Virus record (IMG/VR): IMGVR_UViG_3300032220_000132
Coordinates: 1-64,000 of that record
From: a virus
Direction: 5' to 3' (one strand)
DNA: 64,000 nucleotides
Below the pieces are notes generated by a model, which saw only the letters and a program-made list of their open reading frames with translations, was not told the DNA's origin and made no database searches. Shown one piece after another: positions 36,801 through 56,643 of the stretch (position 1 is the first letter of the stretch; each line of letters starts with the position of its first letter). The position numbers were made by a program, and so were the translations under genes.

Positions 36801-38549
36801 ACCCGTGTTAAAGGAAAAATAGCAGTCTTTCCAAAAGAAGGACCCACAACAAATGGCGCAGTTCGATTAAACATCTTACGCAATGGTCGCAGAATCATCG
36901 TTGAAATCAAGGATCCATTGATTGCCGAGTCCGTAACAGGTATGGAAGATGTTGCTATTCCTGGCATGGATGTCCTCGGTATGGCTGCAAACGGATTACG
37001 CAGAGGTATTACGTTATGGCCTGCGTTCCAAATAAGACAGCTATTTATGGATGCCCCAACAGCTGCTCTGGTTTCTGGAGTAAAGAACCCAACTAAGCTC
37101 TGGGGAGAAGTATTTGGTGGTTTTATAAAGTCAGTAAAAAAGGATGATCCTATAGTTGAGCTCTTACGGTCCTATGGAATAGGTGGATATCAGTCCTATA
37201 CCAGAACTGCAGAAATGGAACTGAAACAAAGGATTGGCTTAATTGAAAAGAACAAGTTTGATTGGTTGATGAGTAAATTAGATCAAATTGGAGATGCCTC
37301 AGATATGGCGCAGCGTGTGGCTATATACAATCGTGTTTTGGCTGAGACTAAATCTGACGAATTTCCTAATGGCGATCAGATGCAAGCCCTTATATCTGCC
37401 AACAACATTATTGACTTCAAAAAACGTGGCTCAGGTCGTTTAGCCCAGTTCCTAACCAGAACTGTATCCTTTATGAACGCCTATGCCCAGCAGATTGACG
37501 TGCTGGCATTGACAATCGCTGGTTCTGGGTACACTGGCAAGAGCAAATCAGACGCCTATGTGCAGTTAGCCAAGACAGCAGTGCTGTTCTCTTTCTACGT
37601 CATGCTCTATTCATGGGCAGTTGGTGGAGAAGATGACTACGAAGAACTAGATGATCAGACAAAACTGCGTAATCTTTATATTCCAAAGGCGCTGACCAAA
37701 CAAATTGGCATGGACAACGGTTTATTAATTCCAATGCACACATCGGCTAGTTTCTTCTTTAAGTCAATTCCAGAGCTAACCTATAACACAGTAATGAAAG
37801 AGGGAACAGAAAATGAAATTGATGGCGCTCGTCTTCGTAAAGCCCTTGCCGAAGCTGCTATAGACTCATTATTAGGTCCTAACCCAGTGCCAACTGGTAT
37901 CAAACCAGGTTTTGAGATTTTGCTCAATAGAAACTTCTTTACTGGTGGCACAGTAACTCCTAAAGGTATGGAAGACCTAGATGCTGTTGAGCAATACACC
38001 GCATCAACCTCTGAGCTTGGCAAGATTCTTAGCGCTATAACTAACATCCCATTCACCGATAAGCGTATTCTTAACCCAATTGAGGCAGATCACCTAGTTC
38101 GTGGTTTATTTGGAACTACTGGTGCAGCTGTCCAGTGGGGTAGCAATATATTCTCTGGTGATCGCCCAACCGCTACAGCTAGACAGAATCCGCTGTATGG
38201 CTCGTTTATTGCCCCTGATGTAGCCCGTGGTAATGAGGAACTGTTCTATGACTTTAAGAGTAAGGTTGATAACAAGTACGAAACCTATATGAAGCTCTTA
38301 GAGCGTGATAAGGCAGATGAGGCTGATAGGTACTACAACAAGCATGCTGACCTGATCTCAGCCCGTGACTATGTGACTGGCATGGAAGTAGCCTTGCGTG
38401 ACTTAAACCGCCAGATTCGTAACACTGGTGAGGTAAAGGACAAGAGTTTCACGCCTGATCAACGTAGACAGGAGATCACTGATCTACAGCGCTCTAAGCA
38501 GGAGCTGCTAGAAGGGATTATCCAGATGCGCTTGGACTCTGGACTGTAA
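24897..38549 (+). CDS. giant DarB-like polyvalent ejection protein (4550 residues)
   Basis: One uninterrupted 13.65-kb frame covers about a fifth of the window. Visible modules in order: tandem NPFAKY at 9-14 and 25-30; Pro- and Lys/Glu-rich linkers to about 790; a zincin motif HEWQH at 1200-1204; an N6-type methyltransferase with DPTGGNG at 1617-1623 and NPPFG at 1678-1682; a low-complexity linker (about 1800-1960) that overlaps another ORF; a strawberry-notch-type helicase with GDDTGVGKGRT at 2206-2216, DEAH at 2341-2344 and GRIHRTGQ at 2786-2793; a second metal-site motif HEAVGH at 3452-3457; and a long helical tail with a hydrophobic stretch near 4220. The methyltransferase-helicase pair is that of phage P1 DarB, an ejected anti-restriction protein. 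The tail resembles LPD38-type polyvalent regions. An ejected multi-tool protein is the best reading. Confidence 0.8.
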   Translation: MAIKPENVNPFAKYVEEPAEAPPENPFAKYLQISQLEEATKKYEEEVPFLQRVTDPLQAGIARIPGILPGLEVSAIQKQINAIREGKGGPRDPITGESLPFQPEEADAAIKMLQAQQSEAQKKVMAAQAEAGKYQTRPAVAALGNAKTAREAFDLFQVDPLGVMSSVSLESLPQMGPALILGAVTRNPTVGALAMGSTSFAGELSSGITEYFQDKGVDVKNPVAVNKALNDPVLFAEAYNHALTRASIIAPLDAASAGLASKMLVPKQVIKNQFAKEALNIGVAQPVAQMISGAGGEALAQLATEGEITKPGQVLMEAAGEGPSSVLETAAFGGKEAYDRLKASQPPAPPVPPAPTVTGAPPAVPPAAPTDLAPTVEEDDLAPSAIVPPSVVAPLAGMVSTEGLDPAIAQQVESLKAELLMIENRRTDPTRNVSEMELEFLAQREAEVAKEITALLTPKAPETLVTPVTPEAPVTPPVTPPVAQLDLIGRLQEFGEVIESRQDAETRFSNGEQIYAFSEQDEQPFLIRNIDEISAYTPDRLLALPAAVAEEVTTEPEVATTNQVFSNDGLQIFAGKNKEGTFVATKGNLGDGTEKTLLLDKDGNTFWGDRKESINPTTGERTIVGADKDATPATFATAKEARSAGERTLEAVPAVEETPAEPTKEEQIAINKARQEEQRAAAEAEKAEKEKAEKEKAPTEEEIAKPTGGPAIGGPAAPTGGPAAPKKVAPTEEEKKEKEEEKKAKEEEKKAREEEKKAKEEEKAQKEEQKKKIAELNTNPMKVAMETGNADAVATLLYGHAVDENLHPVIFPEEMLLRIPVETTLLSQIEDQLVKNKFRITDRAVPAKTDDPSYVGPERITISALYNPEKVSIQGGGAEFFNNRKGQITAAPLPKDATEKQKDALVTELLDLANPKKLLDIQSNPKNTFGALMFKEGLVSKIKSPGDYLFELINLNARAGGQFNTYIPSKAGNRQAIKLVIDDGKEQLVRKLLVDYVTSLQTLQAVINEHSNVTPLYDALVAKYVKDENADRIPDIYTPEGVDLRNKIEDVRLYQYIPRLFLLFSLDENSTDQTNRIVKKDAETPPELGNIIRRGMRDHRQGRDVDVQDFLQTFKFLPGGIDFGNWVNQSERAAHLNAIYDAMYDLADIAGIAPEMLGLNEKLKLAVGAQGRGGKTAAWFVPQYNEINLTKTKGDGTLGHEWQHALDWNLRTSANGKVLMADTAHTLQNMITVERVENNLRSILTNTANSENNRNTPPKKAFFNAISNSRYGEADIYRSSFTDTQFYKDALELDRGRDKPYWSTPVELLSRSFESLIYDLSKGGSPYLVGPTVADGYVSKKNGYLGTTYPAGKERPVINQIYQQMLDQIDPKTLEIKTYKIENQIIAVEELGYAVVDQYYLDRGRLGGLNWFKTKEEAKEAKEQRDGTEAILTPRLMQISKVNQSIINMAQRIDAIMDEMGLFKWPEIKNGSMAESMFYHMRQGWWPKNNRELAEYGIKAYLQAPELLGFNPAKNQREIDNYKIADFEGDRVKLKQTQEDFEAAAVRFISQVITDMRSEGSDTKAIYDHIVGLYQNQPTLDVKSVLSVSNNAYSTPLPIAYLAGMLSRVKSTTTVLDPTGGNGMLVVTANPKNVTTIEIDPHRVNNLELMQIGDVIEGDALVKIKDIQDQKVDVVLTNPPFGSLPTPVDVKSWTGQNYKIGAIDQLIAAESLRTMANDGRAVLILGSHVKPNTITSTDRVFLNWLYGNYNVADHFEIAGNLYRKQGASFPLRVLVIAGRNQTDNVFPNDFVVNRINSFDELWSRYVQASDRSEQVVVGTRKLRGPAGGADRTTRTVPTGDNLQDGETSGGMGRTGEGAGIGEQLPPTGGVNVPPSASGRGTAGGVRDTEQQQDSGEDQRGRPRGGEPSTAERSDISGEESSTELGGLSDLELDDIFNSLGKKPKTGTTTPKGEPKGVRGPRAPKGAAKTKTVIPKELEGLGLESLLDELDAALNGKAPEVTITEPTPENSDARLDKQSQEAMDRIAQNAKNTSDDPNSGLYSRKDDQEYANVKPIIQKVWEAVGQKITDTKQRIQQVYDLLVKKFGDLIKGHLRTYVNELRNTVQRRPKNQTPVQSEPIDTESRVVYLGKSRFSSDGIYLPRAQSQHAYTALENLEAQVGNIDEFVAKELGYSSIDQMAKGLAGYQIDALGLAIQANKLGKGFIIGDDTGVGKGRTAAAMIVWAKKQGKVPIFVTLSDSLYTAMYADLIAIGHGDIQVAMTNSDSKIIKDVGEGKTELVFENKKGDNDKLIKYITQNRKLPPGKDVLFTAYSQLNGGVGSPARQSAIASLVASGDAVLIMDEAHNAAGTPSDKDSMGQNAFFMSLLTGENLLGKGEEVPESWKPPPTVYLSATFAKRPDNMPLYIHTNLRYAADTPEDLTALFGKGVKTDVLQQVSSEMLVESGSMIRRERSYEGVTMEFVIDDKNTARDTREVDKVTEILRSLVNADRAFKEWIKTEGGKDAVVKLGPPGSYMGKVGPTAFNDTKSNPFTSVVHNYIGSLLLSTKTQTAVDMVVDKLNNNEKVVVGLQNTNGSALEDFVAQNNIKKGDDIPDFGWQTLIKRAVKSTTKVTLKSASGNKDMDQVVYVPYELMPPNIRAGYENVENALENFQSDLPAAPIDFIRTELEQKYVWTIDGKTHVGDTPPKGVKARHLVVKEITGRKNGIDYSGDVPKYVTLDNPSRTSMISSYQNGEESKNGPIDVLIINSAGATGISLHASVDAFDQRPRHMIVLQPHGDISVFIQLLGRIHRTGQVEWPSFTMLATGIPAERRILAMLRKKLSSLKSNTSGGSSSTKVEGVDFINMYGDVATAEYLNEHPDIQAFLSVPQYSDPAEAAGSDLAHKASGTAGLLSSADQKEFFDSIEASYIAEIDLRNATGTNALERRVLPLEAEIIKENLIEEGLDSSNPFLTDVVMAQFNVDIIGSIPTVQNIKDDISFALNGKTAQDVVNEIETDLNSVYIEVRNQIVLKQQALDEAIKNPTATEKDIAELNKQKIALDNQFATLNERKDKTLQALSNTFAIGTGFESFIVNSVPSAAVVIGIKVDKARIGKSKTGNPYSPSNFQVIIKRNIPEGRISPTLATLEGTSIERSSPWTNPPLEDWFALKSVTGGRTTRYIALGNILKAAQLFGPSGGEIAKFTLQNSKEAISGVVMPSKYVPVAISEQAVRLRNPEAAVQYLLAMWDSIVQKKYNDTQIESYKELSDTLKPLMIPNLPNPFDGEKTSTNAVILRGSAQTWQLRIDPYRPNNFKVIIAGDVPKKLITAPILKTLIPGGLAKKGNKAYEMSGGDSLTDPQKIILLVKFLHKNYPATVEADSAKFAREVMKVEFDYSESKKGLASRGPAEGGQTVEAVQAQIVPIKGITVNVLQSVDELPDNTAPADVEGMWLSGRTVYLIADNLPNAKRVQEVLAHEAVGHALLEEMLGPKLMAELVRNVQNLEKTSSLVKEIAAKVDRTQPGLSPERRAKEIVANMAERGMYKIGLVQRVIQAIRNWLRSQGYTISFSDRDIVELLNFAENYFDRKEAVRFPSLQPAPAKTQAEINRERQQQKREKAAGYFSREGEGKNTEDFDKQFAEDGFNNTPIRSSSTVKDTLLGGAKQAKQAYDNTIDAPAMAYKAMSGKLLRGITYVRNKNIWYGAGLELAEKINQKAAGLSGKLRDGQGRAMASIAITNALHAGNIAVDVIRQGSLAFNRDSQMFQAIKRPFSMANVIIEKSKLIARVGEQRAHDMIQMYFEAKRSKSINDEFQKIEEEIARLDKERLSPGLDNDQLNQILNDLLNAKQDLKQIGIAKKKVRMTEKQIDFYRKLDEKHPELGKMMENWTKVNQNMIDMMLFSKIISSKRAERLKSIEDYVPWYRIQDDMEDVHDTSTMGSVRSNTNIAKEKKFKDTEVNKDIDDIVDNMLHNVMTITRNSMRNYAANRVVDSFATRVKGKIAVFPKEGPTTNGAVRLNILRNGRRIIVEIKDPLIAESVTGMEDVAIPGMDVLGMAANGLRRGITLWPAFQIRQLFMDAPTAALVSGVKNPTKLWGEVFGGFIKSVKKDDPIVELLRSYGIGGYQSYTRTAEMELKQRIGLIEKNKFDWLMSKLDQIGDASDMAQRVAIYNRVLAETKSDEFPNGDQMQALISANNIIDFKKRGSGRLAQFLTRTVSFMNAYAQQIDVLALTIAGSGYTGKSKSDAYVQLAKTAVLFSFYVMLYSWAVGGEDDYEELDDQTKLRNLYIPKALTKQIGMDNGLLIPMHTSASFFFKSIPELTYNTVMKEGTENEIDGARLRKALAEAAIDSLLGPNPVPTGIKPGFEILLNRNFFTGGTVTPKGMEDLDAVEQYTASTSELGKILSAITNIPFTDKRILNPIEADHLVRGLFGTTGAAVQWGSNIFSGDRPTATARQNPLYGSFIAPDVARGNEELFYDFKSKVDNKYETYMKLLERDKADEADRYYNKHADLISARDYVTGMEVALRDLNRQIRNTGEVKDKSFTPDQRRQEITDLQRSKQELLEGIIQMRLDSGL
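30310..30687 (+). CDS. candidate overprinted gene inside the giant protein's linker
   Basis: In the +1 frame relative to the giant gene there is a 125-codon ORF starting MFKPVIVANKSWWVPENYGD and ending NWEDFLT. GGAG at 30301-30304 lies 5 bases before this ATG; in-frame starts also exist at 30289 (TTG) and 30292. The product looks like a folded helical protein (aromatic, aliphatic and charged residues mixed), whereas the host frame here reads as Gly/Arg/Thr/Ser-rich disorder. By hand count about 86 of 125 codons end in G or C, unlike neighbouring genes. No known family was recognised. It could be a functional nested gene or a relic of an older reading frame. Confidence 0.55.
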   Translation: MFKPVIVANKSWWVPENYGDLLAVQIEQPEQYQQAIISKMAKLAEEWGGLERALASANNYLRQEGSTYLPVPVDVEQLVEFVIQNNSRIAEKINEGDPEVANPAPQKEAIYLVKNQALNWEDFLT

Positions 38550-39020: not shown

Positions 39021-39024
39021 CCTA

Positions 39025-39053
39025 TTGACATACCCAAAACTCTGATACATACT
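39025..39053 (+). promoter_or_regulatory. sigma70-like early promoter
   Basis: TTGACA (39025-39030), 17 bases, then CATACT (39048-39053). The -35 is consensus and four of six -10 bases match. It drives the early rightward region beginning at 39084 and is back-to-back with the rusA promoter. Confidence 0.7.
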
Positions 39054-39083
39054 TGAGTCTAGTTTAACTGCTAGGAGAACTAA

Positions 39084-44915: not shown

Positions 44916-44989
44916 TTTGTGAAAAAAAATTGTTGCAAATTTATTTCTGTTGGTTTAATCTAGTCGTGCTAGGAGAATTACGAGAACGT

Positions 44990-45230
44990 GTGAAAGGCAT
45001 AACTGCCTCTTCACTCTTCGTAACTCTCCACAGCTACACCATATAGGTCGGACATAACAACAGCTATATGGGAAGACCCCCTACTGTGGGATTAGATCTG
45101 AAACAGGGGAAAGGATGGCGAAGCCAGAGTCCTAGATCGAACGTCTGGCGGGTGCAGTGGCTCCGAAAAGCAACTGTTGAAGGCACACCTAGGAGAGGCT
45201 AGGTGCGTCCACCAAAAAGCAACTCTTCTT
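44990..45230 (+). ncRNA. structured non-coding RNA candidate
   Basis: No ORF with coding character spans this block. It holds nested perfect stems: CCACAG (45028-45033) with CTGTGG (45084-45089) around CCATATAG (45039-45046) with CTATATGG (45064-45071); then GCCAGA (45123-45128) with TCTGGC (45144-45149); then CACCTAG (45186-45192) with CTAGGTG (45199-45205). AAAAGCAACT occurs twice (45166-45175, 45215-45224). It lies just upstream of the alpha-CTD-like operon. It does not show tRNA, tmRNA, RNase P or group I intron core motifs that I could recognise. Confidence 0.5.
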
Positions 45231-45424: not shown

Positions 45425-45829
45425 ATGAAAATGACTGTAGAGTTCAATAGTATTGCGGACATGGCAAACTTTTCTGCCTTTGTCAATCAGCGTTTAGAAG
45501 AAGATGCAAAAGTCAGAGAGTTAAATCAATTGCGAGGACAACTGGATTTAGCCAAGCAACAACTGGAACGTGCCTATGCCCGCTTGCGTTTTAAGGATGA
45601 CAAGGACAACGAGAAGACTTATGCGATCTCGCTTGATGATCTGCCACTAAAAGTCCGAACCTACAACTGTTTGATAGCAGAAGGATGCCAAAATGTTGGT
45701 GATGTTGTGGCATTGTTCCAAAAAAACCAATTGCGTAAAATCCCAAACTTTGGCAACGGCAGTTTCAGTAATCTCAAAAGAGTCTTTGCCGAACAATTAA
45801 AAATAACCCTTGATCGGAAACAAGCATGA
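45425..45829 (+). CDS. RNA polymerase alpha-CTD-like protein
   Basis: This encodes 134 residues. AAGGAG at 45413 is 6 bases before this ATG, which rules out the upstream TTG at 45389. Residues about 22-55 are a coiled coil. Residues about 70-128 align with the C-terminal domain of bacterial RpoA: LPLKVRTYNCL matches LTVRSANCL and LRKIPNFGNGSFSNLK matches LLKTPNLGKKSLTEIK. DNA-contact positions keep R78 (E. coli R265), N81 (N268), C82 (C269), G110 (G296) and S113 (S299), while K298 becomes G112 and E302 becomes N116. It likely binds promoter DNA and competes with or replaces the host alpha-CTD; the coiled coil may dimerise it. The next gene overlaps by 4 bases. Confidence 0.8.
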   Translation: MKMTVEFNSIADMANFSAFVNQRLEEDAKVRELNQLRGQLDLAKQQLERAYARLRFKDDKDNEKTYAISLDDLPLKVRTYNCLIAEGCQNVGDVVALFQKNQLRKIPNFGNGSFSNLKRVFAEQLKITLDRKQA

Positions 45830-46695
45830 AGAAACTAAATATACTCAACATCCGCACTGATGGGGGCACTCAGCCCCGTGTCCAACTGGATCAAGACCTA
45901 GTCAAAGAATATGCCGAGGTCATGCGTGAGGGAGTCGTTTTCCCACCAGTAGAAGTATTCCATGATGGCTCAGAATACTGGCTAGTCGATGGATTCCATC
46001 GCTACTTTGGTTATAAAGCTAATGGTTTAACCAGTATCGAAGCGATTGTCCATACTGGCACACTGCGTGAAGCCCAGTTTTACGCATGGAAAGCCAACAA
46101 CAAGCATGGCAACCGCCTTAAAGCCGAAGATATCCGTGCCATTCTCCGCATCATGCTTGTCGATGAGGTATATAGCAAATGGTCAAACAACCATATTGCT
46201 AAGGAACTAGGTATTTCCAGCATGACTGTTGGGCGTGTGCGGGTAGCAATGCAAGAAGAAGCTAAAACCCCAGCCCAAACTTCTGTTACTTATGTCGATA
46301 AGCATGGCAACACAACCACCATGAAGACCGATAAAAAGAAGAAAAAGGCTACAACCAAAGCTCCAACTACTAAACCTGATGTCACCACCGAAAGCCCAAC
46401 CGCAGAACTAGAGCAAAAGGTAAACGAATTAACCGATACAGTGAACTCACTGGCAGACGAAAACACCCTACTGCGGGATAAGATTGCCATCGGACAGTGG
46501 GATGCCTCAGAAATTGAGAAGATCGATGCTGAGCAGACCATCAAAGACTTGCGTGAGCAGATCCGAGTATTGGAAATTGAGAACAAATCATTGCGTGAAG
46601 GCAGAGATATGTATCAGAACCGCAACTCCGAGTTAATGAAGACTGTTAAATCATTAACCAGCAGGCTAAAGAAATTTGAAAAGGAGACTGCATGA
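45826..46695 (+). CDS. ParB-like nuclease-domain protein with HTH and coiled coil
   Basis: This encodes 289 residues. The N-terminal ParB/sulfiredoxin-like domain has QPRVQLDQDLVKEYAEVM and LVDGFHRYFGYKANG, followed by an HTH (NNHIAKELGISSMTVGRVR, about 125-145), a Lys/Thr-rich linker and a C-terminal coiled coil. It probably binds a specific DNA site for replication, partition or regulation. It overlaps the alpha-CTD-like gene by 4 bases. Confidence 0.75.
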   Translation: MKKLNILNIRTDGGTQPRVQLDQDLVKEYAEVMREGVVFPPVEVFHDGSEYWLVDGFHRYFGYKANGLTSIEAIVHTGTLREAQFYAWKANNKHGNRLKAEDIRAILRIMLVDEVYSKWSNNHIAKELGISSMTVGRVRVAMQEEAKTPAQTSVTYVDKHGNTTTMKTDKKKKKATTKAPTTKPDVTTESPTAELEQKVNELTDTVNSLADENTLLRDKIAIGQWDASEIEKIDAEQTIKDLREQIRVLEIENKSLREGRDMYQNRNSELMKTVKSLTSRLKKFEKETA

Positions 46696-49158: not shown

Positions 49159-49964
49159 TGAGGTTTGAAGACTTTGCCCGATCCCATGGGCTGATTATCA
49201 ACAGTGTTGTTCCTTTTAAATGGGTAGCAACCCCAACAGATGACCATCCACATAAGCGTAATGGGCGCTATAAATTCATGGGTGATGTTGGCTGGGTGCA
49301 AAACTGGGCAACCATGGATAAGCCAAGTATGTGGCGCAATAATGGAAATTATGCGACAACCCCACAGTTTCTAAAACTGCGAGACCAAGAAGACCAAAAA
49401 CGCAAGGCTTTGGCTGATCGTGCTTGTGCAAAAGCAGGCTGGATCATGCACCAGACTGAAGTTATGCACCATCCATATCTGTTAAAAAAAGGTTTTCCAG
49501 ACGAGAAAATGCCCGTGCATGACGGCAAATTAGTAGTGGCGATGCGGAAAGATGGAAAAATAGTAGGATGCCAACTCATCAATGACGAGGGGGATAAGAA
49601 GTTTCTCTATGGTCAGCAGACGAAGGGGGCAACTTTCACCTTTGATGCAAAAGGTGTCCCGATCTTCTGCGAGGGTTTGGCTACGGGCTTGTCTATTCAG
49701 GCGGTAATGAGAGCCAATAAAATGCGATACACAATCCATGTTTGCTTTAGTGCAGGCAACCTCAAGGAAGTAGCAAGGCTTATCCCCAATGGGATAGTCG
49801 TGGCTGACAATGACCCCAGTGGTGTCGGAGAAAGAATCGCCAAAGAGACAGGCAAACCTTATTGGATCAGCGACACAATCGGGCATGATTTCAATGATGA
49901 CTATGTTGCTCATGGTCTATTTAGGATGTCCCAATCCCTCAAAAAGGTGTTGATAGGCAGATAA
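49158..49964 (+). CDS. Toprim primase-like protein
   Basis: This encodes 268 residues. FCEGLATGLS provides the Toprim glutamate and VVADNDPSGVGERIAKETG the DxD, as in phage primases. The N-terminal part (FARSHGLIINSVVPFKWVATP) resembles the domain before Toprim in phage primase families. No helicase motif is present, so the separate helicase at 46904 may supply it. It should prime DNA synthesis by the host polymerase. Confidence 0.75.
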   Translation: MRFEDFARSHGLIINSVVPFKWVATPTDDHPHKRNGRYKFMGDVGWVQNWATMDKPSMWRNNGNYATTPQFLKLRDQEDQKRKALADRACAKAGWIMHQTEVMHHPYLLKKGFPDEKMPVHDGKLVVAMRKDGKIVGCQLINDEGDKKFLYGQQTKGATFTFDAKGVPIFCEGLATGLSIQAVMRANKMRYTIHVCFSAGNLKEVARLIPNGIVVADNDPSGVGERIAKETGKPYWISDTIGHDFNDDYVAHGLFRMSQSLKKVLIGR

Positions 49965-49970
49965 TATAGA

Positions 49971-50004
49971 AAAACCCCCAGTCTTACGGCACTGGGGGTA
50001 TCTA
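49971..50004 (-). terminator. bidirectional terminator between convergent operons
   Basis: CCCCCAGT, loop of 8, ACTGGGGG. On the minus strand the stem is followed by TTTTTC, so it ends the leftward accessory operon; rightward it is followed by TATCTATTT and may also end the early operon. Confidence 0.8.
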
Positions 50005-50021
50005 TTTACTGCTAGGTAAAT

Positions 50022-50168
50022 CTAATTAGGTTTTGGATCTTTCTTTTCCTCTAACTCCTCAACCCGCTTAATTAGGGTATCAACTCGGTCATTCCACAAC
50101 TGGGAATCCACCGACTGAGGCCATGTAATTAAGTGTTCTTTTATAAGTTCTAAGATACTTTTAGGCAT
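50022..50168 (-). CDS. small accessory protein
   Basis: This encodes 48 residues: MPKSILELIKEHLITWPQSV, DSQLWNDRVDTLIKRVEEL and a Lys-rich end. It is helical. It is the last gene of the leftward operon and overlaps its upstream neighbour by 8 bases. It begins with the MPK start shared by several genes here. Confidence 0.5.
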   Translation of the reverse strand: MPKSILELIKEHLITWPQSVDSQLWNDRVDTLIKRVEELEEKKDPKPN

Positions 50169-50334
50169 TCGGATCTACCTCATCTAATCCGTAAACCTCA
50201 ACAATTTCCCAGTTATCTACATCCTTGGGATTAGCCACATCCATCCCATATTCTTCAGGATCTTCCCCATTTGGCACATCCACCTCAACATAGGTAGTCC
50301 CAATAAATTTGACACTCATTCCATATCTACGCAT
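50161..50334 (-). CDS. small acidic accessory protein
   Basis: This encodes 57 residues starting MRRYGMSVKFIGTTYVEVDV. AGGAAG precedes this ATG; MSVKF 15 bases later is another possible start. The C-terminal two thirds are strongly acidic. Family unknown. Confidence 0.5.
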   Translation of the reverse strand: MRRYGMSVKFIGTTYVEVDVPNGEDPEEYGMDVANPKDVDNWEIVEVYGLDEVDPNA

Positions 50335-50510
50335 GATTCTTCCTTTATTCCACATACACACAAATAAACACCTTTACAGTCAGGATCAAACCCAAAACTC
50401 TTGGCAAGATCATCCCAATCCCTTGGCACTATCTCAGGATCAACATACATCCACCCACCCTTGGGTAAAACTGTATATCCCGCTTGTTCTACCTCTTGTT
50501 GGTTAAGCAT
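50316..50510 (-). CDS. small accessory protein with Cys pair
   Basis: This encodes 64 residues starting MLNQQEVEQAGYTVLPKGGW. AGGAG lies about 7 bases upstream, which decides this start over a far longer open frame. CVCG near the end might bind metal. It resembles small phage proteins with a PKGGWMYVDPE pattern; function is unknown. Confidence 0.5.
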   Translation of the reverse strand: MLNQQEVEQAGYTVLPKGGWMYVDPEIVPRDWDDLAKSFGFDPDCKGVYLCVCGIKEESCVDME

Positions 50511-50658
50511 CTTGCATCTCCTCAACTCTGACATACTCAGGTGTCTCAAAATGATCCCATGTAGATTGCTCGTATGCTTTACTAATCGCACTATCTTGAT
50601 CTTTAGCATCAACTTCTACATACCCATACGATACAAACACAACTGTATATTTAGGCAT
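50503..50658 (-). CDS. small acidic accessory protein
   Basis: This encodes 51 residues: MPKYTVVFVSYGYVEVDAKD, then an acidic helical part. It overlaps both neighbours by 8 bases. MPK start. Function is unknown. Confidence 0.55.
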   Translation of the reverse strand: MPKYTVVFVSYGYVEVDAKDQDSAISKAYEQSTWDHFETPEYVRVEEMQDA

Positions 50659-51292
50659 CTTCCATCTCCTCAAGTTCTTTCTTCTTGGCGATCAACTGGG
50701 CAGAAAGTTCAGCATCATCCTTTTCTTTCAAGGTTTCTTCCAGTTCCTCGATCTCATCAGCAAGTTCTTGCATAGCCCATTCTTTCATGCTCTCGGTGAT
50801 GCCAAACTCAAGGTCAATGTTATCGGGGATATTGTTTTTGACATCCAACCAATTACCGCTAATGTCATAGGTCTCATCTGAACCATCCACATATTGACCG
50901 CAAAAGCAACAACCGCCCTCATAGTAAAGAGCATTCACCCCATAACCTTGATCTACCAGTTTGTCAAAGATTCCAGTAGGCGGAGACCACGCAGTGGCGA
51001 ATGATGCTCTGATCTCATTTTCCTGAATATCAATGTAGGCTTCATCCGTAGTAATCTCCCACTTTGTTCCCCAGTTCTGAACCCGCCAATCCCACCATGC
51101 TGATTCAGGATTAACTGGATCGTCATTACCCTTGATACTGGGGAATGTCGGCTTGACCTTTACCTTGGTGTAATCAGGCTCAGGATGGATAGTTCCAAAG
51201 AATTTGTTTGCTTTCCACGCATCCACAAGAACCTGAATCTTCTTGGGATCATCATGGGTTATATATACAGTGTTATCGCACCAATTAGGCAT
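50651..51292 (-). CDS. Api92-like (DUF1281) protein
   Basis: This encodes 213 residues. MPNWCDNTVYITHD, the Trp-rich middle (WWDWRVQNWGTKWE) and the SPPTGIFDKL motif are typical of the Api92-like/DUF1281 family with a ferredoxin-like fold, common in phages and plasmids. An acidic coiled coil makes up the last 50 residues. Its role is not known. Confidence 0.7.
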   Translation of the reverse strand: MPNWCDNTVYITHDDPKKIQVLVDAWKANKFFGTIHPEPDYTKVKVKPTFPSIKGNDDPVNPESAWWDWRVQNWGTKWEITTDEAYIDIQENEIRASFATAWSPPTGIFDKLVDQGYGVNALYYEGGCCFCGQYVDGSDETYDISGNWLDVKNNIPDNIDLEFGITESMKEWAMQELADEIEELEETLKEKDDAELSAQLIAKKKELEEMEDA

Positions 51293-51470
51293 TTTGATTC
51301 TCCTTATGTTGTTGTTCAGCCAGTCTTCTTTGCTTCATAGCCATCAGCCGACCATAGTGCATCTTGTCTTCTAATCGCCATTCGTAATATTCGATCTTGC
51401 ATCTTTTCGTTAAATCGAAAAACATACTATTCATTTCCAATTCAATTTCTTCAAGTGATTTTTTAGGCAT
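51285..51470 (-). CDS. small helical accessory protein
   Basis: This encodes 61 residues starting MPKKSLEEIELEMNSMFF, with AGGAG 8 bases upstream. The rest is a charged helix rich in Arg, Lys and Gln. MPK start. Function is unknown. Confidence 0.5.
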   Translation of the reverse strand: MPKKSLEEIELEMNSMFFDLTKRCKIEYYEWRLEDKMHYGRLMAMKQRRLAEQQHKENQNA

Positions 51471-51642
51471 TTGCTTTCTCCTCTTCAGAAATAACAAAGT
51501 AATAGGTGCTATAACATTTTGGGCAAACTACCTCGGCTTCTTCCTGCCCTTCAATCTCATGCTCGGCATGGGTAAACCCAATGTGATGGCAGTCCAAGCA
51601 AATGTTCTGCACATCATCTTCTACTTCAAAGTATTTAGGCAT
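51463..51642 (-). CDS. small zinc-ribbon accessory protein
   Basis: This encodes 59 residues starting MPKYFEVEDD. CLDCHH and CPKCYS form a zinc ribbon. Otherwise acidic. GGGAG precedes the ATG. Function is unknown. Confidence 0.55.
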   Translation of the reverse strand: MPKYFEVEDDVQNICLDCHHIGFTHAEHEIEGQEEAEVVCPKCYSTYYFVISEEEKANA

Positions 51643-51814
51643 CTTCACACTCCCCTGCATAAACTTCTTCGTAGATTGATTTGATAACCTCACCCTCATG
51701 CTCATCAGCACAGTATTCAATGACATCCTGAACTGTCCAATGTCCTACATGGATTGTTCTGCCTGATGCAAACTCAACCATGTAAGCCTTTTCGTAATCT
51801 GAGTCATAACTCAT
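51635..51814 (-). CDS. small acidic accessory protein
   Basis: This encodes 59 residues starting MSYDSDYEKAYMVEF, with AGGAG 7 bases upstream. Acidic residues far outnumber basic ones. Beta start and helical end. Function is unknown. Confidence 0.5.
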   Translation of the reverse strand: MSYDSDYEKAYMVEFASGRTIHVGHWTVQDVIEYCADEHEGEVIKSIYEEVYAGECEDA

Positions 51815-52109
51815 CTTCACACTCCTCATCAGTGCTAACGCATACCTCTAACCCATCACCCTCATAAGGCACTTCGGTAATGTAATAGTAGATACGATTG
51901 ACCAAGTGATAACCATCCACCACATAAGTCCCGCCATCCCCATCCACATAAGTCCATACCCGCTTTGGCTGAGTATCTGCAATACCCAAGACATAACCCA
52001 GTTCAATGTCGTATGTCTCAAAGTAATCCCTTGTGCATTCCCGATTCTCACCTCTTGCGAGGTGATTTTGAATCGGTTTGTATTTGTCATACCATTCATC
52101 AAAATCCAT
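51804..52109 (-). CDS. acidic accessory protein
   Basis: This encodes 101 residues: MDFDEWYDKYKPIQNHL, then a beta-rich part with VWTYVDGDGGTYVVDGYHLVN and an acidic tail. It overlaps the next gene by 11 bases. It is similar to small phage proteins of unknown role. Confidence 0.5.
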   Translation of the reverse strand: MDFDEWYDKYKPIQNHLARGENRECTRDYFETYDIELGYVLGIADTQPKRVWTYVDGDGGTYVVDGYHLVNRIYYYITEVPYEGDGLEVCVSTDEECEDEL

Positions 52110-52118
52110 ATAGCCCCC

Positions 52119-52598
52119 TTACCAACTGGCTTGATAGTAAAACTCATACTGATCTTCGGGCAGTGATTCCAACGCACTGGTAATGCCCTCGACAGTATTC
52201 TTTAGGTCTTGCCAATACCATTCATCCTTTTCGTATGAACCAAAAAAGAATCCCTCTACTGGATCTAAATCATCATCCCTTATGCCATCAGGATCATTCA
52301 GGATTGACTGGCACAAGTCCCGCAACTCCACCAGTTTTTCCCTTGGCACATAGGATTGCTGACACTCATCCACCCCACCCTGACAGTTTTCCACGAACCA
52401 CCCATGGATAGCGTTAGCCTTTCTCCAATACATGGCATCAATGGATACTTCCTTGACCACAAGGCTCGATCCCCCAAATCGTTTCTCAGGATTACCATCA
52501 ACCCCAATCATTTGATTGACCTTTTGAGATATTTCCTTGTCCTCGTCTCGGTGAGACGAAAGATATCTCTTGGCAGTTAAATACATATCTAAACCCAT
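52119..52598 (-). CDS. conserved phage accessory protein (MGLDMYL / WRKANAIHGWFV family)
   Basis: This encodes 159 residues. MGLDMYLTAKRYL and YWRKANAIHGWFVENCQ mark a family frequent in phages and plasmids; the biochemical role is unknown. The leader has the CTGCTAGGAG box and a two-hairpin element, so expression may be controlled at the RNA level. Confidence 0.65.
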   Translation of the reverse strand: MGLDMYLTAKRYLSSHRDEDKEISQKVNQMIGVDGNPEKRFGGSSLVVKEVSIDAMYWRKANAIHGWFVENCQGGVDECQQSYVPREKLVELRDLCQSILNDPDGIRDDDLDPVEGFFFGSYEKDEWYWQDLKNTVEGITSALESLPEDQYEFYYQASW

Positions 52599-52601
52599 AA
52601 C

Positions 52602-52679
52602 ATTCTCCTAGCAGTTAAAGTTATGATTGCCGAATGACAATCCCTATGCCCTCACACAAAGGCATAGAAGTATCACTCA
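52602..52679 (-). promoter_or_regulatory. two-hairpin leader RNA element (copy 1)
   Basis: Read leftward, the element starts at the TGA stop of the upstream gene: TGAGTGATACTT, a hairpin with stem CTATGCC/GGCATAG, a second with GATTG/CAATC, then AACTGCTAGGAG and the ATG. A diverged copy lies at 55254, with base changes on both stem sides that keep pairing. Confidence 0.7.
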
Positions 52680-52928
52680 GGGCATCACTGGCAAACAGGA
52701 TTGCTTATCATCACTGGTAAACAATGCACCACCACCATTCCCCTCATCATCCCGACTGGGGAAGAACCACAGACCATCATGGGTTTGAAAAGCGATTGAC
52801 CTTTCATACCAACCCATCTCCCCCATTTCTTCCTTGGTCATGTATCGAACATTGACAATGCGTTTATGCAACAACAGTTTTTTGGCTTCATCATTCCAAT
52901 ACTTGTCGTAATCCTTAATTTCTTTCAT
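52677..52928 (-). CDS. small accessory protein
   Basis: This encodes 83 residues starting MKEIKDYDKYWNDEAKKLLL. TAGGAG precedes the ATG; the GTG just upstream is a poorer start. It is mixed alpha-beta, with WFFPSRDDEGNGGGALF in the middle. Function is unknown. Confidence 0.5.
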   Translation of the reverse strand: MKEIKDYDKYWNDEAKKLLLHKRIVNVRYMTKEEMGEMGWYERSIAFQTHDGLWFFPSRDDEGNGGGALFTSDDKQSCLPVMP

Positions 52929-52937
52929 CACACTCTC

Positions 52938-53015
52938 CTAGTTAAAAGTAACGATTGCAGACCACACCACATACGCAGTGTAGGCTACTGCTATTGGCAC
53001 AATCCAGTCCCACAT
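52938..53015 (-). CDS. 25-residue membrane microprotein
   Basis: The ORF MWDWIVPIAVAYTAYVVWSA plus IVTFN is one membrane segment with no charged core. GAGGGGG lies 8 bases before the ATG, which overlaps the previous TAA (TAATG), and its own TAG is part of the AGGAG of the next gene. The tight coupling supports translation; the short length keeps confidence moderate. Confidence 0.45.
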   Translation of the reverse strand: MWDWIVPIAVAYTAYVVWSAIVTFN

Positions 53016-53299
53016 TACTGCACCCCCTCTAATTCGTAATCAACTTCAAAAATAGTGAGATTGTCCTTATCAATCTCAACAATGGTGAAGTCCTCACCAT
53101 CATTAAGAACATCTCCCGCTTTCAACGATTCCATTTCCTGCCCAGTCAAAAAGAAGTAAATCTTTTCATCTGCCCAACTATCAAAATACGCATCTTCAGG
53201 ATGACCATCTTCTGCAACTCCCAGTAATACATTTGCACCATCACCTAACCAGTCGCAACTAATGACTGCGTCATAGGCTTTAATCTTCATTGTCGGCAT
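53015..53299 (-). CDS. acidic accessory protein
   Basis: This encodes about 94 residues. MPTMKIKAYDAVISC is preferred because the CTGCTAGGAG box (53306-53315) is 6 bases upstream; an ATG directly after the box (53305) is too close. It is beta-rich and acidic (DGEDFTIVEIDKDNLTIFEVDY). Function is unknown. Confidence 0.5.
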   Translation of the reverse strand: MPTMKIKAYDAVISCDWLGDGANVLLGVAEDGHPEDAYFDSWADEKIYFFLTGQEMESLKAGDVLNDGEDFTIVEIDKDNLTIFEVDYELEGVQ

Positions 53300-53305
53300 A
53301 TCCAT

Positions 53306-53423
53306 CTCCTAGCAGTTTGACAAAGACCCCCCGACTGCTTCGTTTACTCATACAGGCATATTGCGTCATATACTCAGTAAGGTAATTAGGGGGGTTTCGA
53401 CTATTCAAGTCTCTTCAGTTTGC
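53306..53423 (-). promoter_or_regulatory. leader region with CTGCTAGGAG box and G/C-run pairing
   Basis: This 118-base gap holds the CTGCTAGGAG box next to the gene. CCCCCC and GGGGGG runs about 60 bases apart could pair. Only a 29-codon overlapping frame is present. No promoter was seen. Confidence 0.45.
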
Positions 53424-53609
53424 CTAGTAATCCTCGTTTTCTTCCCACAGGCAAGGATCAACTAACCTTTGCCCGAAAGCATTGAACAACTGCCCACAAT
53501 CACAAGCAACATCCTCGCCTGAACCATCCGAGCAGACCTTTTTATTGCACTGGCACTTCCATTCCCGCCACAGAATTCGACCAGTATCTTGGCATTCAAC
53601 GATTCTCAT
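53424..53609 (-). CDS. small cysteine-rich accessory protein
   Basis: This encodes 61 residues. Several Cys (CQCNKKVC, CDCGQ) suggest zinc binding. The ATG overlaps the previous TAA (TAATG). Function is unknown. Confidence 0.55.
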   Translation of the reverse strand: MRIVECQDTGRILWREWKCQCNKKVCSDGSGEDVACDCGQLFNAFGQRLVDPCLWEENEDY

Positions 53610-53911
53610 TATTCAAACTCCTTTGGCACGATCACATCAAACTTACGCAACAGGGCTATTGCCTTGTCAGACAGGCACATCACTCCGTCATATTCATCCA
53701 AGGTGCGGACTCCAAACTGGTCAATGGTGAACCACAGACCAATGTATTCAAAACCCACATCCTCGATATCCCACTCAATGAACCCAGTAGCATCATCCCT
53801 AAAATACAACTCCATGGTGGATTCGTGAGTCCCGATATCCTTCTCGCCCCAACTGCCTTCCATAATCAAAGGGCAGTTAAAGGTCTCTTTGCCGATAAAG
53901 TAGTGAGTCAT
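53609..53911 (-). CDS. acidic accessory protein
   Basis: This encodes 100 residues starting MTHYFIGKETFNCPLIM; an ATG two codons upstream is also possible. It is beta-rich and acidic. Function is unknown. Confidence 0.5.
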   Translation of the reverse strand: MTHYFIGKETFNCPLIMEGSWGEKDIGTHESTMELYFRDDATGFIEWDIEDVGFEYIGLWFTIDQFGVRTLDEYDGVMCLSDKAIALLRKFDVIVPKEFE

Positions 53912-53913
53912 AA

Positions 53914-54276
53914 TCAATACTCCGAACTAAGCATAAGAACATTGTCGGTCAGGAAGAACTGATACTCCCCATCAGGGCAGTCAGTATGCTCAATATGCTT
54001 TTGTTTGAAAGTCCTGTAATCACCATCTTCAATACTGATATCGGCACTGCCATTGGCAACTGCCAATTTGATAGCCAAAAATGGCTCTTTCTTGAGCAGT
54101 GGAAATGCTTCAGTGGCGATAATGTCCAAGAACCAGTAAGCACCATTTCCCGCATTGTCAGCAAAGTATTTAACTCCGTCAGTGTGAACCATGTCCTTAG
54201 CAAAAATAGGATTGGTGCGATAGTAATTCTCAGTCCCATAAAACTGGGATAAATCTAATTTGGTAGTCGATTCCAT
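53914..54276 (-). CDS. DUF6876-like accessory protein
   Basis: This encodes 120 residues. LSQFYGTENYYRTN, TDGVKYFADNAGNGAYWFLDIIAT and the ending MLSSEY match the DUF6876 family order (FTGTE-x-YR, YTDGVKYLA, YWLLD, LPSEY). This family is widespread in phages and plasmids and uncharacterised. Confidence 0.65.
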   Translation of the reverse strand: MESTTKLDLSQFYGTENYYRTNPIFAKDMVHTDGVKYFADNAGNGAYWFLDIIATEAFPLLKKEPFLAIKLAVANGSADISIEDGDYRTFKQKHIEHTDCPDGEYQFFLTDNVLMLSSEY

Positions 54277-54471
54277 TTAATTCTCTCCCTTAATTGAGGT
54301 AGGTTTTAACGATTTAACAAAAGCAACTGCGTGGTGATGAAAAGCAAATGTAGCAAGCCAGTATTTCCTAACATGGATATCAGGCTTGCTTGACACAGGA
54401 CTGGCATCATATTCGTCAAGTCTGACAACCTTAAAAGTAAAATCAGGTGTTTTTTCTATTTCATAATTCAT
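54277..54471 (-). CDS. small accessory protein
   Basis: This encodes 64 residues starting MNYEIEKTPDFTFKVV. GAGGAUGAAGAAG-type sequence precedes it and the end of the upstream gene overlaps by 11 bases. It contains HHHAV. Function is unknown. Confidence 0.45.
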   Translation of the reverse strand: MNYEIEKTPDFTFKVVRLDEYDASPVSSKPDIHVRKYWLATFAFHHHAVAFVKSLKPTSIKGEN

Positions 54472-54859
54472 CTTCTTCATCCTCTGCACCAAGCACAGTA
54501 TCGACAATGTAATCACCAAACTTCAGAACCCCATCATCATTGGTGCATAAGGTGGCAGTCTCAAACACTACAAGCGTTGAATCCTTGCGATCATCAGTAG
54601 CGTAAGCAACAGGCACAAGACCAATCAAACCCGCATCAACTGGGTAAGTATTGCCTTTGTTATCGGGATAGCAACCATCACCCCATTTAGTGCCAAAAGC
54701 AAGAACTTCAAAGTCCCCAACTTTGCCAACAGGGGCATTGAAGTAATTGCATGATGCAAGCAGATCGCCCCAATCCTTATCAGGCACTACATAGCAGGGA
54801 TCGCCAAGGATGTAAGCACCCTTTGGAACTACGACAGATATAGAACTTAATGTAAGCAT
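54461..54859 (-). CDS. GDPCY-motif accessory protein
   Basis: This encodes 132 residues. YILGDPCYVVPDKDWGDLL, FGTKWGDGCYPDNKGNTYPVD and AGLIGLVPV form a family seen in many phages and some bacteria. The Cys in GDPCY and GDGCY recur. Biochemical role unknown. Confidence 0.6.
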   Translation of the reverse strand: MLTLSSISVVVPKGAYILGDPCYVVPDKDWGDLLASCNYFNAPVGKVGDFEVLAFGTKWGDGCYPDNKGNTYPVDAGLIGLVPVAYATDDRKDSTLVVFETATLCTNDDGVLKFGDYIVDTVLGAEDEEDEL

Positions 54860-54861
54860 GA

Positions 54862-55251
54862 TTAGATTCCTCTGTAATTGTCAGGGTTATATTCCCGTTG
54901 ATGCCCCGCATAATCAACGGCTTTGTAGTCAGCAATCTCAACATTCAAAGGGATCACCTGCAACCCAGTTAATTGCTCGATACGGCAAGCAGTCAGGATG
55001 CTAACAATCATGGTGTAAAGATTATCATCATCAGACCTAACATCCAGTAGAAGCGAGGTGTGGCGGTCAGTAGTGCTAATCAATCTGCCAATCTCGCCAG
55101 TCCAAACAAGCAGACCATCCTCTGTGGAAGATGGATCATTCAGGTTAGCGATGCTATGGTCAGCAAGGGCAACAGTGTTGTTGTCCTCATTGTGGAACAG
55201 GTAATGCGAGAAGCATTTCTTGGCTTCAATTTTATTAACCAATTCAAACAT
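54862..55251 (-). CDS. accessory protein with hairpin leader
   Basis: This encodes 129 residues starting MFELVNKIEAKKCFSHYLF. Beta-alpha pattern; the last third (IPLNVEIADYKAVDYAGHQ) is not similar to known families to me. It has the CTGCTAGGAG box and the second two-hairpin leader. Function is unknown. Confidence 0.5.
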   Translation of the reverse strand: MFELVNKIEAKKCFSHYLFHNEDNNTVALADHSIANLNDPSSTEDGLLVWTGEIGRLISTTDRHTSLLLDVRSDDDNLYTMIVSILTACRIEQLTGLQVIPLNVEIADYKAVDYAGHQREYNPDNYRGI

Positions 55252-55253
55252 AT

Positions 55254-55335
55254 TAAATCTCCTAGCAGTTAGTCGAATGATTGTTGAATAACAATCCCTA
55301 AACCCATTGGGTAATGGGCTTAGAGGTATTACTCA
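55254..55335 (-). promoter_or_regulatory. two-hairpin leader RNA element (copy 2)
   Basis: Read leftward: TGAGTAATACCT starting at the stop codon of the upstream gene, a hairpin CTAAGCCCATT/AATGGGTTTAG, a second GATTGT/ACAATC, then AACTGCTAGGAG. It mirrors copy 1 at 52602 in order and spacing, with different but still paired stem bases. Confidence 0.7.
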
Positions 55336-55557
55336 ATAACTGGCTCTCGCTTCTGCTTGATGCTCAGCCATCATATCGGCACGAACATCAACCATGGCTT
55401 GCAGGGATTGGATTGTCTTAACGACATCCATATCGTTTAGGGCTAATTCTTCCAGTAATTGGCTATCATCATAGGCTTCTACTACGACATCCCAACCCAT
55501 GTTGTATAAGGCTTCAGCGTATGCTTTGATTGCTTGAATCTTGTCTTGCTCAGTCAT
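55333..55557 (-). CDS. first gene of the leftward operon
   Basis: This encodes 74 residues starting MTEQDKIQAIKAYAEALYNMG; helical and acidic. A near-consensus CTACTAGGAG precedes the ATG by 7 bases. As the promoter-proximal gene it is expressed first. Function is unknown. Confidence 0.55.
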   Translation of the reverse strand: MTEQDKIQAIKAYAEALYNMGWDVVVEAYDDSQLLEELALNDMDVVKTIQSLQAMVDVRADMMAEHQAEARASY

Positions 55558-55602
55558 TATTTTCTCCTAGTAGTCGAATCGGTGTTTAAGCACCTACCGA
55601 CA

Positions 55603-55630
55603 GTTTTACAAAGTAGCAATACCATGTCAA
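55603..55630 (-). promoter_or_regulatory. leftward promoter of the accessory operon
   Basis: On the minus strand TTGACA (55630-55625), a 16-base spacer and TAAAAC (55608-55603). The -35 is consensus and the -10 matches at four of six. A GGTG-CTTAAA-CACC hairpin lies in the leader. Confidence 0.65.
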
Positions 55631-55680
55631 TACCTTTTTGAAAATATTTTTAGGGCTTACTGGATAAGGGTTTGCGGGGC

Positions 55681-56643
55681 ATGGAGTCTGGGCAAATAGA
55701 CCTAAAAGCGGGCAAAGGTGCGAAGCACAACAGTCCAGTAGCAAAGACACTAGAGAGAGATATAGGAGAGATAGAAGATAGTAGTAGCAGAATCATCCTG
55801 ATTGCCCTAGAATCAGGCTATGACGATTCTCAAGAGATACCTATGAAAAGGCTAACAAGGAAAGAGATAGAGCAAGGCTTACAGGCTATGCCAGTGGATA
55901 CTCTTTTACTGGGGGTTAGCACTGCCAAAGAAAAGCGATTAACCCACAAACAAATCGAATTTGCCAAGCAGGTAGCACTGGGAGAAAGCAAGGCAGGGGC
56001 TTATCGGAAGTCGCATAACAGTAAGGGAAAGCCAAGCACACAGAGCAAGAATGGGCAGGCTCTCGCAAAAAACAAGGCTATCCAAACCCAAATAGATGCG
56101 TTTAAGGTGGCACTTGAGGCACAGAAATATCAAACTCCTGCTCATTTAAGGGCATTGGCAATCCATCGGATCACTGAAAAGGCTCTCGATCCTGCTTGCC
56201 CGCCTGCTCAGCAACTCAAGGCACTGGAACTATTGGGGAAGATAACCGAGGTCGCACTCTTTACCGAGAGACGAGAGGTAATTAAGGTCAGTGATCCCAG
56301 TGAGATGCGGGAGAAACTCATGGCGAGTATCAGACTGGCAATCGAGAACAGTCAGGCAATCGACATTGAGGCACGATCCGCAGACGATCTACTGGCAGAA
56401 CTCGTGGGAACTAACAATCAAGATGATGATGTGGCGGGAAATGATGCAGAACTAGATGATGTGGATGCAGAGACATCCTTAAAAGAGGTGGCAGACCCTT
56501 CGCAAAAGGCAGATCTCGAAGACCCACAGACCCCCGACAGCCAAATTTTGGCATTGGCTCGTGAGCCAGACTTGCATAGTATTCCACACAATGAATCCCC
56601 TCCTAAATCCACTGAACCTAGGGAAAACCCTGCCTCACTATAA
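55681..56643 (+). CDS. small terminase subunit-like protein
   Basis: This encodes 320 residues from ATG 55681; a TTG at 55672 also opens the frame. RLTHKQIEFAKQVALGESKAGAYRKSH is a terS-type helix-turn-helix followed by a helical oligomerisation region (about 130-210). The last 90 residues are acidic and Asp/Glu/Pro rich. It should recognise the packaging site. It lies upstream of the large terminase with three small genes between. Confidence 0.65.
   Translation: MESGQIDLKAGKGAKHNSPVAKTLERDIGEIEDSSSRIILIALESGYDDSQEIPMKRLTRKEIEQGLQAMPVDTLLLGVSTAKEKRLTHKQIEFAKQVALGESKAGAYRKSHNSKGKPSTQSKNGQALAKNKAIQTQIDAFKVALEAQKYQTPAHLRALAIHRITEKALDPACPPAQQLKALELLGKITEVALFTERREVIKVSDPSEMREKLMASIRLAIENSQAIDIEARSADDLLAELVGTNNQDDDVAGNDAELDDVDAETSLKEVADPSQKADLEDPQTPDSQILALAREPDLHSIPHNESPPKSTEPRENPASL

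What the first reader, a model, noticed from the sequence alone, without database searches (positions are those of the whole stretch)
52602..55335. Duplicated two-hairpin leader with compensatory changes
Two leftward leaders (52602-52679, 55254-55335) share the same order: start at the upstream TGA, TGAGTRATAC, hairpin A, hairpin B (GATTG/CAATC), then AACTGCTAGGAG. Hairpin A differs in sequence (CTATGCC/GGCATAG versus CTAAGCCCATT/AATGGGTTTAG) but still pairs. That is the signature of a conserved RNA structure rather than of conserved sequence.
Basis: seen in the sequence. Interest (0 to 1): 0.75.

Follow-up and report, generated by a model that had tools for sequence, protein, structure and literature searches.

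The report
Mobile two-state RNA hairpin between genes
Two intergenic leaders in this phage belong to a family of short RNA elements, not in the RNA family library searched, that sit between unrelated phage genes and can fold in two mutually exclusive ways, which points to a generic device for handling the messages of neighbouring genes.

Summary
Both leaders exist on the minus strand between co-directional genes, each starting at the upstream stop codon and ending in AGGAG before the next start. A covariance search gave 93 copies in virus contigs (53 distinct sequences). Hairpin A is strongly supported by compensatory changes. G-U pairs outnumber A-C mismatches 121 to 8 (P1+A) and 39 to 5 (B), so the folded molecule is the sense-strand RNA. 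Neighbouring genes fall into 32 (upstream) and 30 (downstream) clusters. One copy (L100) is a natural chimera joined inside the element. Rfam, genome contigs and named phages gave no match. Neither fold hides the ribosome-binding site. Best explanation: an intercistronic processing/insulation hairpin (RNase III-type), with hairpin B becoming the 5' cap of the downstream message; a ribosome-set switch is the main rival. The anatomy is well supported; the mechanism is inferred.

The parts
52605..52679 (-). Element copy 2 (75 nt), from the stop codon of ORF 52677-52931 to the Shine-Dalgarno of ORF 52119-52598
   Evidence: 85.1 bits
55259..55335 (-). Element copy 1 (77 nt), from the stop codon of ORF 55333-55557 to the Shine-Dalgarno of ORF 54862-55251
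   Evidence: 77.3 bits
52671..52678 (-). P1 5' strand GAGTGATA, overlapping the upstream TGA stop
52632..52639 (-). P1 3' strand TGTCATTC, overlapping hairpin B 5' arm and loop
52644..52667 (-). Hairpin A (CTATGCCTT / AGGGCATAG)
52625..52642 (-). Hairpin B (GATTGTC / GGCAATC), exclusive with P1
55327..55334 (-). P1 5' strand GAGTAATA
55286..55293 (-). P1 3' strand TGTTATTC
55298..55323 (-). Hairpin A (CTAAGCCCATT / AATGGGTTTAG)
55279..55296 (-). Hairpin B (GATTGTT / AACAATC), exclusive with P1
52605..52609 (-). Shine-Dalgarno AGGAG of ORF 52119-52598
55259..55263 (-). Shine-Dalgarno AGGAG of ORF 54862-55251

Best explanation
Shown by comparison: these are two copies of a mobile intercistronic RNA element about 70-90 nt long. 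It begins at the upstream gene's stop codon and ends at the next gene's ribosome-binding site. It folds either as one long bulged hairpin (P1 + A) or as hairpin A plus hairpin B; P1 and B compete for the same middle strand. Inferred: it works like the intercistronic processing hairpins of phage T7. In the polycistronic transcript, P1+A is the double-stranded substrate for the host's RNase III (or a similar nuclease), cut on the 3' side near the bulged GGAUUG. The upstream message keeps hairpin A at its 3' end. The downstream message, now without the P1 5' strand, refolds so that hairpin B stands at its 5' end just before the Shine-Dalgarno and shields it from 5'-end-dependent decay. A ribosome stopping at the built-in stop codon also opens P1, so upstream translation can gate the process. 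Because the element is self-contained (stop, hairpins, Shine-Dalgarno), genes can be exchanged around it by recombination.
For: P1+A: 95.2% of cells paired against 26-50% slid, 161 double-change cells against 47.8 shuffled. B: 94.7% against 17-58% slid, 27 against 6.1. P1 alone: 90.0% against 18-58% slid, 44 against 11.9. Own-partner duplexes beat swapped partners among 22 subtype representatives: P1 14/5000 permutations as good, B 0/5000. Sense-strand RNA: G-U 121 against A-C 8, and 39 against 5. The stop codon of the longest upstream frame is at offset 0 or +4 of the element in 57 of 69 contexts and within -7 to +10 in 67 of 69. 32 upstream and 30 downstream protein clusters, so the role is generic. 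Removing everything before GGATT makes B the MFE fold in 49 of 53. Shine-Dalgarno accessibility is the same in both states (0.48 against 0.49), which argues for RNA processing or stability rather than RBS occlusion. T7 R1.1 is cut once into a 47-nt and a 13-nt product (PMC4858673, passages), a similar geometry to cutting this hairpin of about 50 nt near its 3' bulge. RNase III cuts that leave stabilising 5' or 3' hairpins are proposed in E. coli (PMC5371410, passages). L100 is a chimera with its junction inside the element.
Against: There are no cleavage, transcript or expression data. No nuclease specificity was tested. P1 is imperfect: columns 11-51 are unpaired in 15 of 52 rows and columns 12-50 in 9 of 52, and one subtype (L056, folded) pairs the bulge instead of leaving it open. 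Folded alone, both window copies are almost wholly P1 (0.9999 and 0.996), so B needs a trigger. B is the free MFE fold in 13 of 53 copies, which would weaken a dsRNA substrate there.
Confidence: 0.42

Rival explanations
1. Ribosome-set switch. A ribosome terminating on the stop codon inside the P1 5' strand opens P1, B forms, and this changes re-initiation or decay of the next gene, so the element reports upstream translation.
For: The stop codon lies in or next to the P1 5' strand in 67 of 69 contexts, also in diverged subtypes with TAG. Blocking the first 13 nt gives B in 49 of 53 MFE folds and B above 0.5 in 48 of 57 contexts.
Against: The Shine-Dalgarno is equally accessible in both states (mean change 0.012), so no read-out is evident. 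The stop position may only reflect compact gene packing.
Confidence: 0.2
2. Primarily a recombination linker: conserved homology between genes that lets phages swap small genes, with RNA structure as a by-product.
For: L100 joins the upstream gene and 5' half of the L091/L092-type element to the 3' half and downstream gene of the L098 type. Gene pairings are mixed. The element takes the place of a small gene between the same neighbours in L039 compared with the window.
Against: Homology for recombination needs conserved sequence, whereas here sequence diverges while pairing is kept, and the G-U bias fits the sense-strand RNA only.
Confidence: 0.13
3. Operator for an RNA-binding protein (phage or host) that regulates a set of phage genes.
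For: Bulges at fixed places and near-invariant GGATT (alignments).
Against: 30 downstream clusters, and GGATTG is replaced by GGGCTGA or GGGCTAA in diverged copies.
Confidence: 0.12
4. Processive antitermination RNA like HK022 put.
For: Similar size (about 70 nt) and two stem-loops (PMC9378689, passages).
Against: [quoted passage not shown] No exclusive P1/B design appears in the passages on put that I saw.
Confidence: 0.08

Closest known systems
T7-type RNase III processing sites (R1.1 and others)
   Same: Bulged long hairpins between genes of a polycistronic phage transcript, next to the downstream ribosome-binding site (placement recalled; the single cut of R1.1 is from passages of PMC4858673).
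   Different: Here the 3' strand can re-pair as a second hairpin (B) and the stop codon lies in the closing stem. Cleavage is untested.
T4 PeSL mobile regulatory cassettes (Arbiol et al. 2010; seen only as a citation in PMC4177764; content recalled)
   Same: Short stem-loop elements interspersed among small phage genes, associated with gene shuffling.
   Different: PeSLs carry an early promoter (recalled). No sigma-70-like promoter was called inside these elements, and the three-strand switch is not part of that description as I recall it.
HK022 put antitermination RNA
   Same: About 70 nt, two stem-loops (PMC9378689, passages).
   Different: Placed after promoters, not between genes; acts on RNA polymerase.

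Membership tests
T7-type RNase III processing site | Double-stranded hairpin of about two turns with a bulge or internal loop | tested here: met
   P1 8 bp + 2 bp + A 9-11 bp with small bulges, conserved by covariation
T7-type RNase III processing site | Lies between co-directional genes | tested here: met
   Stop codon at the 5' end and start codon after the 3' end of nearly all copies
T7-type RNase III processing site | Cleaved by RNase III | not testable with these tools
   needs biochemistry
T4 PeSL | Contains an early promoter (recalled) | tested here: not met
   sigma-70 scan of 49900-56300 calls no promoter inside either copy; phage-specific promoters are not covered
T4 PeSL | Dispersed stem-loop associated with gene shuffling | tested here: met
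HK022 put | Located downstream of an early promoter | tested here: not met
   copies lie between genes; no promoter called next to them
HK022 put | Suppresses termination through the RNAP beta' zinc-binding domain | not testable with these tools
   needs biochemistry
RBS-occluding riboswitch or thermometer | One of the two folds pairs the Shine-Dalgarno | tested here: not met
   Shine-Dalgarno unpaired 0.48 free and 0.49 with the 5' strand blocked, mean over 57 contexts
Any Rfam 15 family | Score above the gathering threshold | tested here: not met
   no match at the copies in the window or at copies in 6 related loci

The most novel reading that the evidence does not exclude
A portable, gene-independent RNA switch whose state is set by the ribosome terminating on a stop codon built into its closing stem. 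Phages use it as a standard connector between exchangeable small genes, so that each new gene pair is insulated and the decay or re-initiation of the second gene is tied to translation of the first.
Probability: 0.2. Interest if true: 0.8.

Novelty: new variant of a known kind. Interest (0 to 1): 0.62.

Why it matters
Phage accessory regions are full of small genes that come and go. A self-contained connector carrying a stop codon, an RNA-processing or switching structure and a ribosome-binding site would explain how such genes can be swapped and still be expressed. The three-strand covariation gives clear stem mutants and repairs to test, and no Rfam family matched.

Tried and rejected
Simple ribosome-binding-site repeat: rejected, because the RBS occurs without the hairpins and some copies carry another RBS (L071, L072, L080). 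Intrinsic terminator: hairpin A of both copies was flagged by a loose scan (tail ATTGTYATTC; 13 sites in the region against 4.6 in shuffles), but the tail is not a T-run and a gene follows at once. RBS-occluding switch: not met. Integron attC site: considered from memory only, not tested. Bacterial or prophage origin: two genome contigs pattern scans found 0. Named phages: blastn of the region found none, and of a leader query only an 18-nt match in two records of one Bdellovibrio phage, taken as chance. The intergenic region 53295-53428 with the same RBS folds no better than shuffles (z -0.72). A model hit on the opposite strand of G014 (E 0.0014) was only a promoter-like stretch plus RBS, a false positive.

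Rows dropped: of 97 matches with E up to 0.0011, I used 93 and left out four (L038 and L052, same contigs as L027 and L008). In one search two of 53 rows (L099, L013) were left out because the model alignment cuts them. In one search the four copies without B in the fold (L070:42, L087:7189, L099, L013) are those where the alignment misplaces B; by eye each has a B-like stem. Chance loci were fetched too: 6 of 14 stretches (none of the 6 has a B 3' arm, against all 10 matches in the other 8 stretches; read by eye), three of 33 stretches (L040, L044, L058), and a number of the 51 stretches.

Full report
What is there. The window is 64,000 of 64,206 bases of a virus record with terminase large subunit, portal, helicase and primase genes. 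Two leaders lie on the minus strand in a cluster of small genes, of which one of ten scanned passes a Pfam cut-off (DUF6876). Copy 1 (55335-55259) starts at the stop codon of ORF 55333-55557 and ends at the Shine-Dalgarno of ORF 54862-55251. Copy 2 (52679-52605) does the same between ORFs 52677-52931 and 52119-52598.

A third pairing strand. The minimum-energy fold of both copies, and of two relatives, is one long hairpin. Hairpin B (GATTGTC/GGCAATC, GATTGTT/AACAATC) uses the same middle strand, so P1 and B exclude each other.

Relatives. Pattern scans of viral contigs were made with B required, with the B 3' arm free and for a diverged hairpin A. A covariance model of P1+A (R1) searched over 82 sources gave 170 matches at E up to 5, of which 97 at E up to 0.0011. 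I kept 93 of these 97, which are 53 distinct sequences. The model's structure does not include B. In 20 whole virus records the element occurs one to three times each by strong hits (E below 1e-4); five weaker hits (E 0.001-0.009) remain, of which one was read and is false.

Tests of structure. On the 53 distinct copies P1+A is paired in 95.2% of cells against 26-50% in slid controls, with changes on both sides at 15 of 19 pairs. P1 alone: 90.0% against 18-58%, 7 of 8 pairs. B: 94.7% against 17-58%, 27 double-change cells against 6.1 in shuffles; but the number of B pairs with double changes (3 of 7) and of pair types was not clearly above shuffles (98/500 and 122/500). The alignment is fitted to P1+A, which favours that structure but not B. 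Own partners bind better than swapped ones among 22 subtype representatives: P1 -4.50 against -3.43 kcal/mol (14/5000 permutations as good), B -7.86 against -5.97 (0/5000). Copies found without asking for the B 3' arm keep it: all 8 stretches (read) and the 10 matches with a hairpin A, two of them (L099, L104) with an altered, longer stem; the six other matches have none (read). In L078:3391-3470 all three strands have changed together, ATGTGCCA/TGGTATAT and GATTGGT/ACTAATC (read by eye). Two diverged copies (L070:42, L087:7189) have a different sequence in P1, A and B with the same plan, P1 with one mismatch each (by eye).

Level of action. G-U pairs (121 in P1+A, 39 in B) far outnumber A-C mismatches (8, 5) on the sense strand, so the selected molecule is the transcript, not double-stranded DNA or the antisense RNA.

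Context. The longest upstream frame ends at offset 0 or +4 of the element in 57 of 69 contexts and within -7 to +10 in 67 of 69 (my tally of the list). The contexts are not independent, and the pattern forced TAA at the 5' end of the copies that it found. Upstream proteins form 32 clusters (89 proteins), downstream ones 30 (92 proteins); a few clusters may rest on wrong start choices. Pairs of copies that share only the downstream cluster are more alike in A, middle and tail (0.79, 0.85, 0.84) than pairs sharing neither (0.50, 0.72, 0.59). Pairs that share only the upstream cluster are more alike in the P1 5' strand (0.82 against 0.63), and also somewhat in the other parts. L100 matches L092 up to inside the element (91.9%) and L098 from the element on (93.3%), so the junction lies within it. 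L039 has an element where the window has a small gene, between the same two neighbours (positions from the alignment ends).

Folding logic. Evaluated on projected structures, the two states have similar energies (mean -16.8 and -17.7 kcal/mol; rough, with a spread of 5). The free MFE holds P1 in 37 and B in 13 of 53; with the first 13 nt blocked B appears in 49 of 53; in the fragment from GGATT on B appears in 49 of 53. With 35 nt of downstream sequence included, P1 is dominant in 38 and B in 14 of 57 contexts, and Shine-Dalgarno access does not differ between free and blocked (0.48, 0.49). Both window copies are nearly all P1 when free. So B needs a trigger there: removal of the 5' strand by cleavage, or a ribosome on the stop codon. 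Neither fold hides the Shine-Dalgarno.

Interpretation. The cleavage model uses both folds in sequence and explains the generic gene context; the ribosome model explains the stop codon inside P1. They are not exclusive. I rank cleavage first because there is no Shine-Dalgarno read-out and because a bulged intercistronic hairpin next to a ribosome-binding site is how T7 processing sites are built (recalled; single-cut R1.1 from passages of PMC4858673). This step is inference.

Known or new. No Rfam family matches. No genome contig matched two exact patterns, and no named phage matched at blastn sensitivity except an 18-base match taken as chance. Literature searches (listings, plus passages of PMC3014915, PMC4177764, PMC9378689, PMC4858673 and PMC5371410) showed no description of it; the library lacks most subscription papers, and Arbiol 2010 is not held.

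Noticed in passing
window 45037-45153 (+); also L087 986-1100 (+): Rfam RF02932 Betaproteobacteria-1 RNA (98.3 and 88.9 bits) inside phage contigs, in the window preceded by a GTGCTAGGAG motif at 44966 without an obvious ORF. Suggests a betaproteobacterial host or a phage origin of that RNA.
   Followed up: partly
window 39023-39077 (+): TTGACA promoter-like stretch followed by TTTAACTGCTAGGAG and ATG; a related stretch is on virus record G014 (L120). CTGCTAGGAG seems to be a standard RBS of these phages.
   Followed up: partly
window 53295-53428 (-): Intergenic region with ACCCCCC and GGGGGGT far apart, ending in the same AACTGCTAGGAG; folds no better than shuffles.
   Followed up: partly
window 55560-55635 (-): By eye, TTGACA upstream of the first small gene (ORF 55333-55557), then GGTAGGTG..CACCGATTCGACTACTAGGAG: a different 5' hairpin leader; a similar one occurs in L031 before another gene.
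   Followed up: no
L091 4604-4676, L092 2870-2940, L098 434-521, L100 2740-2810: Copies with an added third hairpin CCCGCCCGAAAGGGC between hairpin B and the Shine-Dalgarno.
   Followed up: no
window 24897-38549 (+): Single ORF of 4550 aa.
   Followed up: no
window 45826-46695 (+): ParB-like partition protein (PHROG 1033, E 3e-19) in the phage, possibly a phage-plasmid trait.
   Followed up: no
window 53914-54276 (-): DUF6876 gene (PF21781, E 3e-28); relatives in other contigs carry their own element copies with a distinctive hairpin A loop (GCACTGC), while the window copy of this gene has none.
   Followed up: partly
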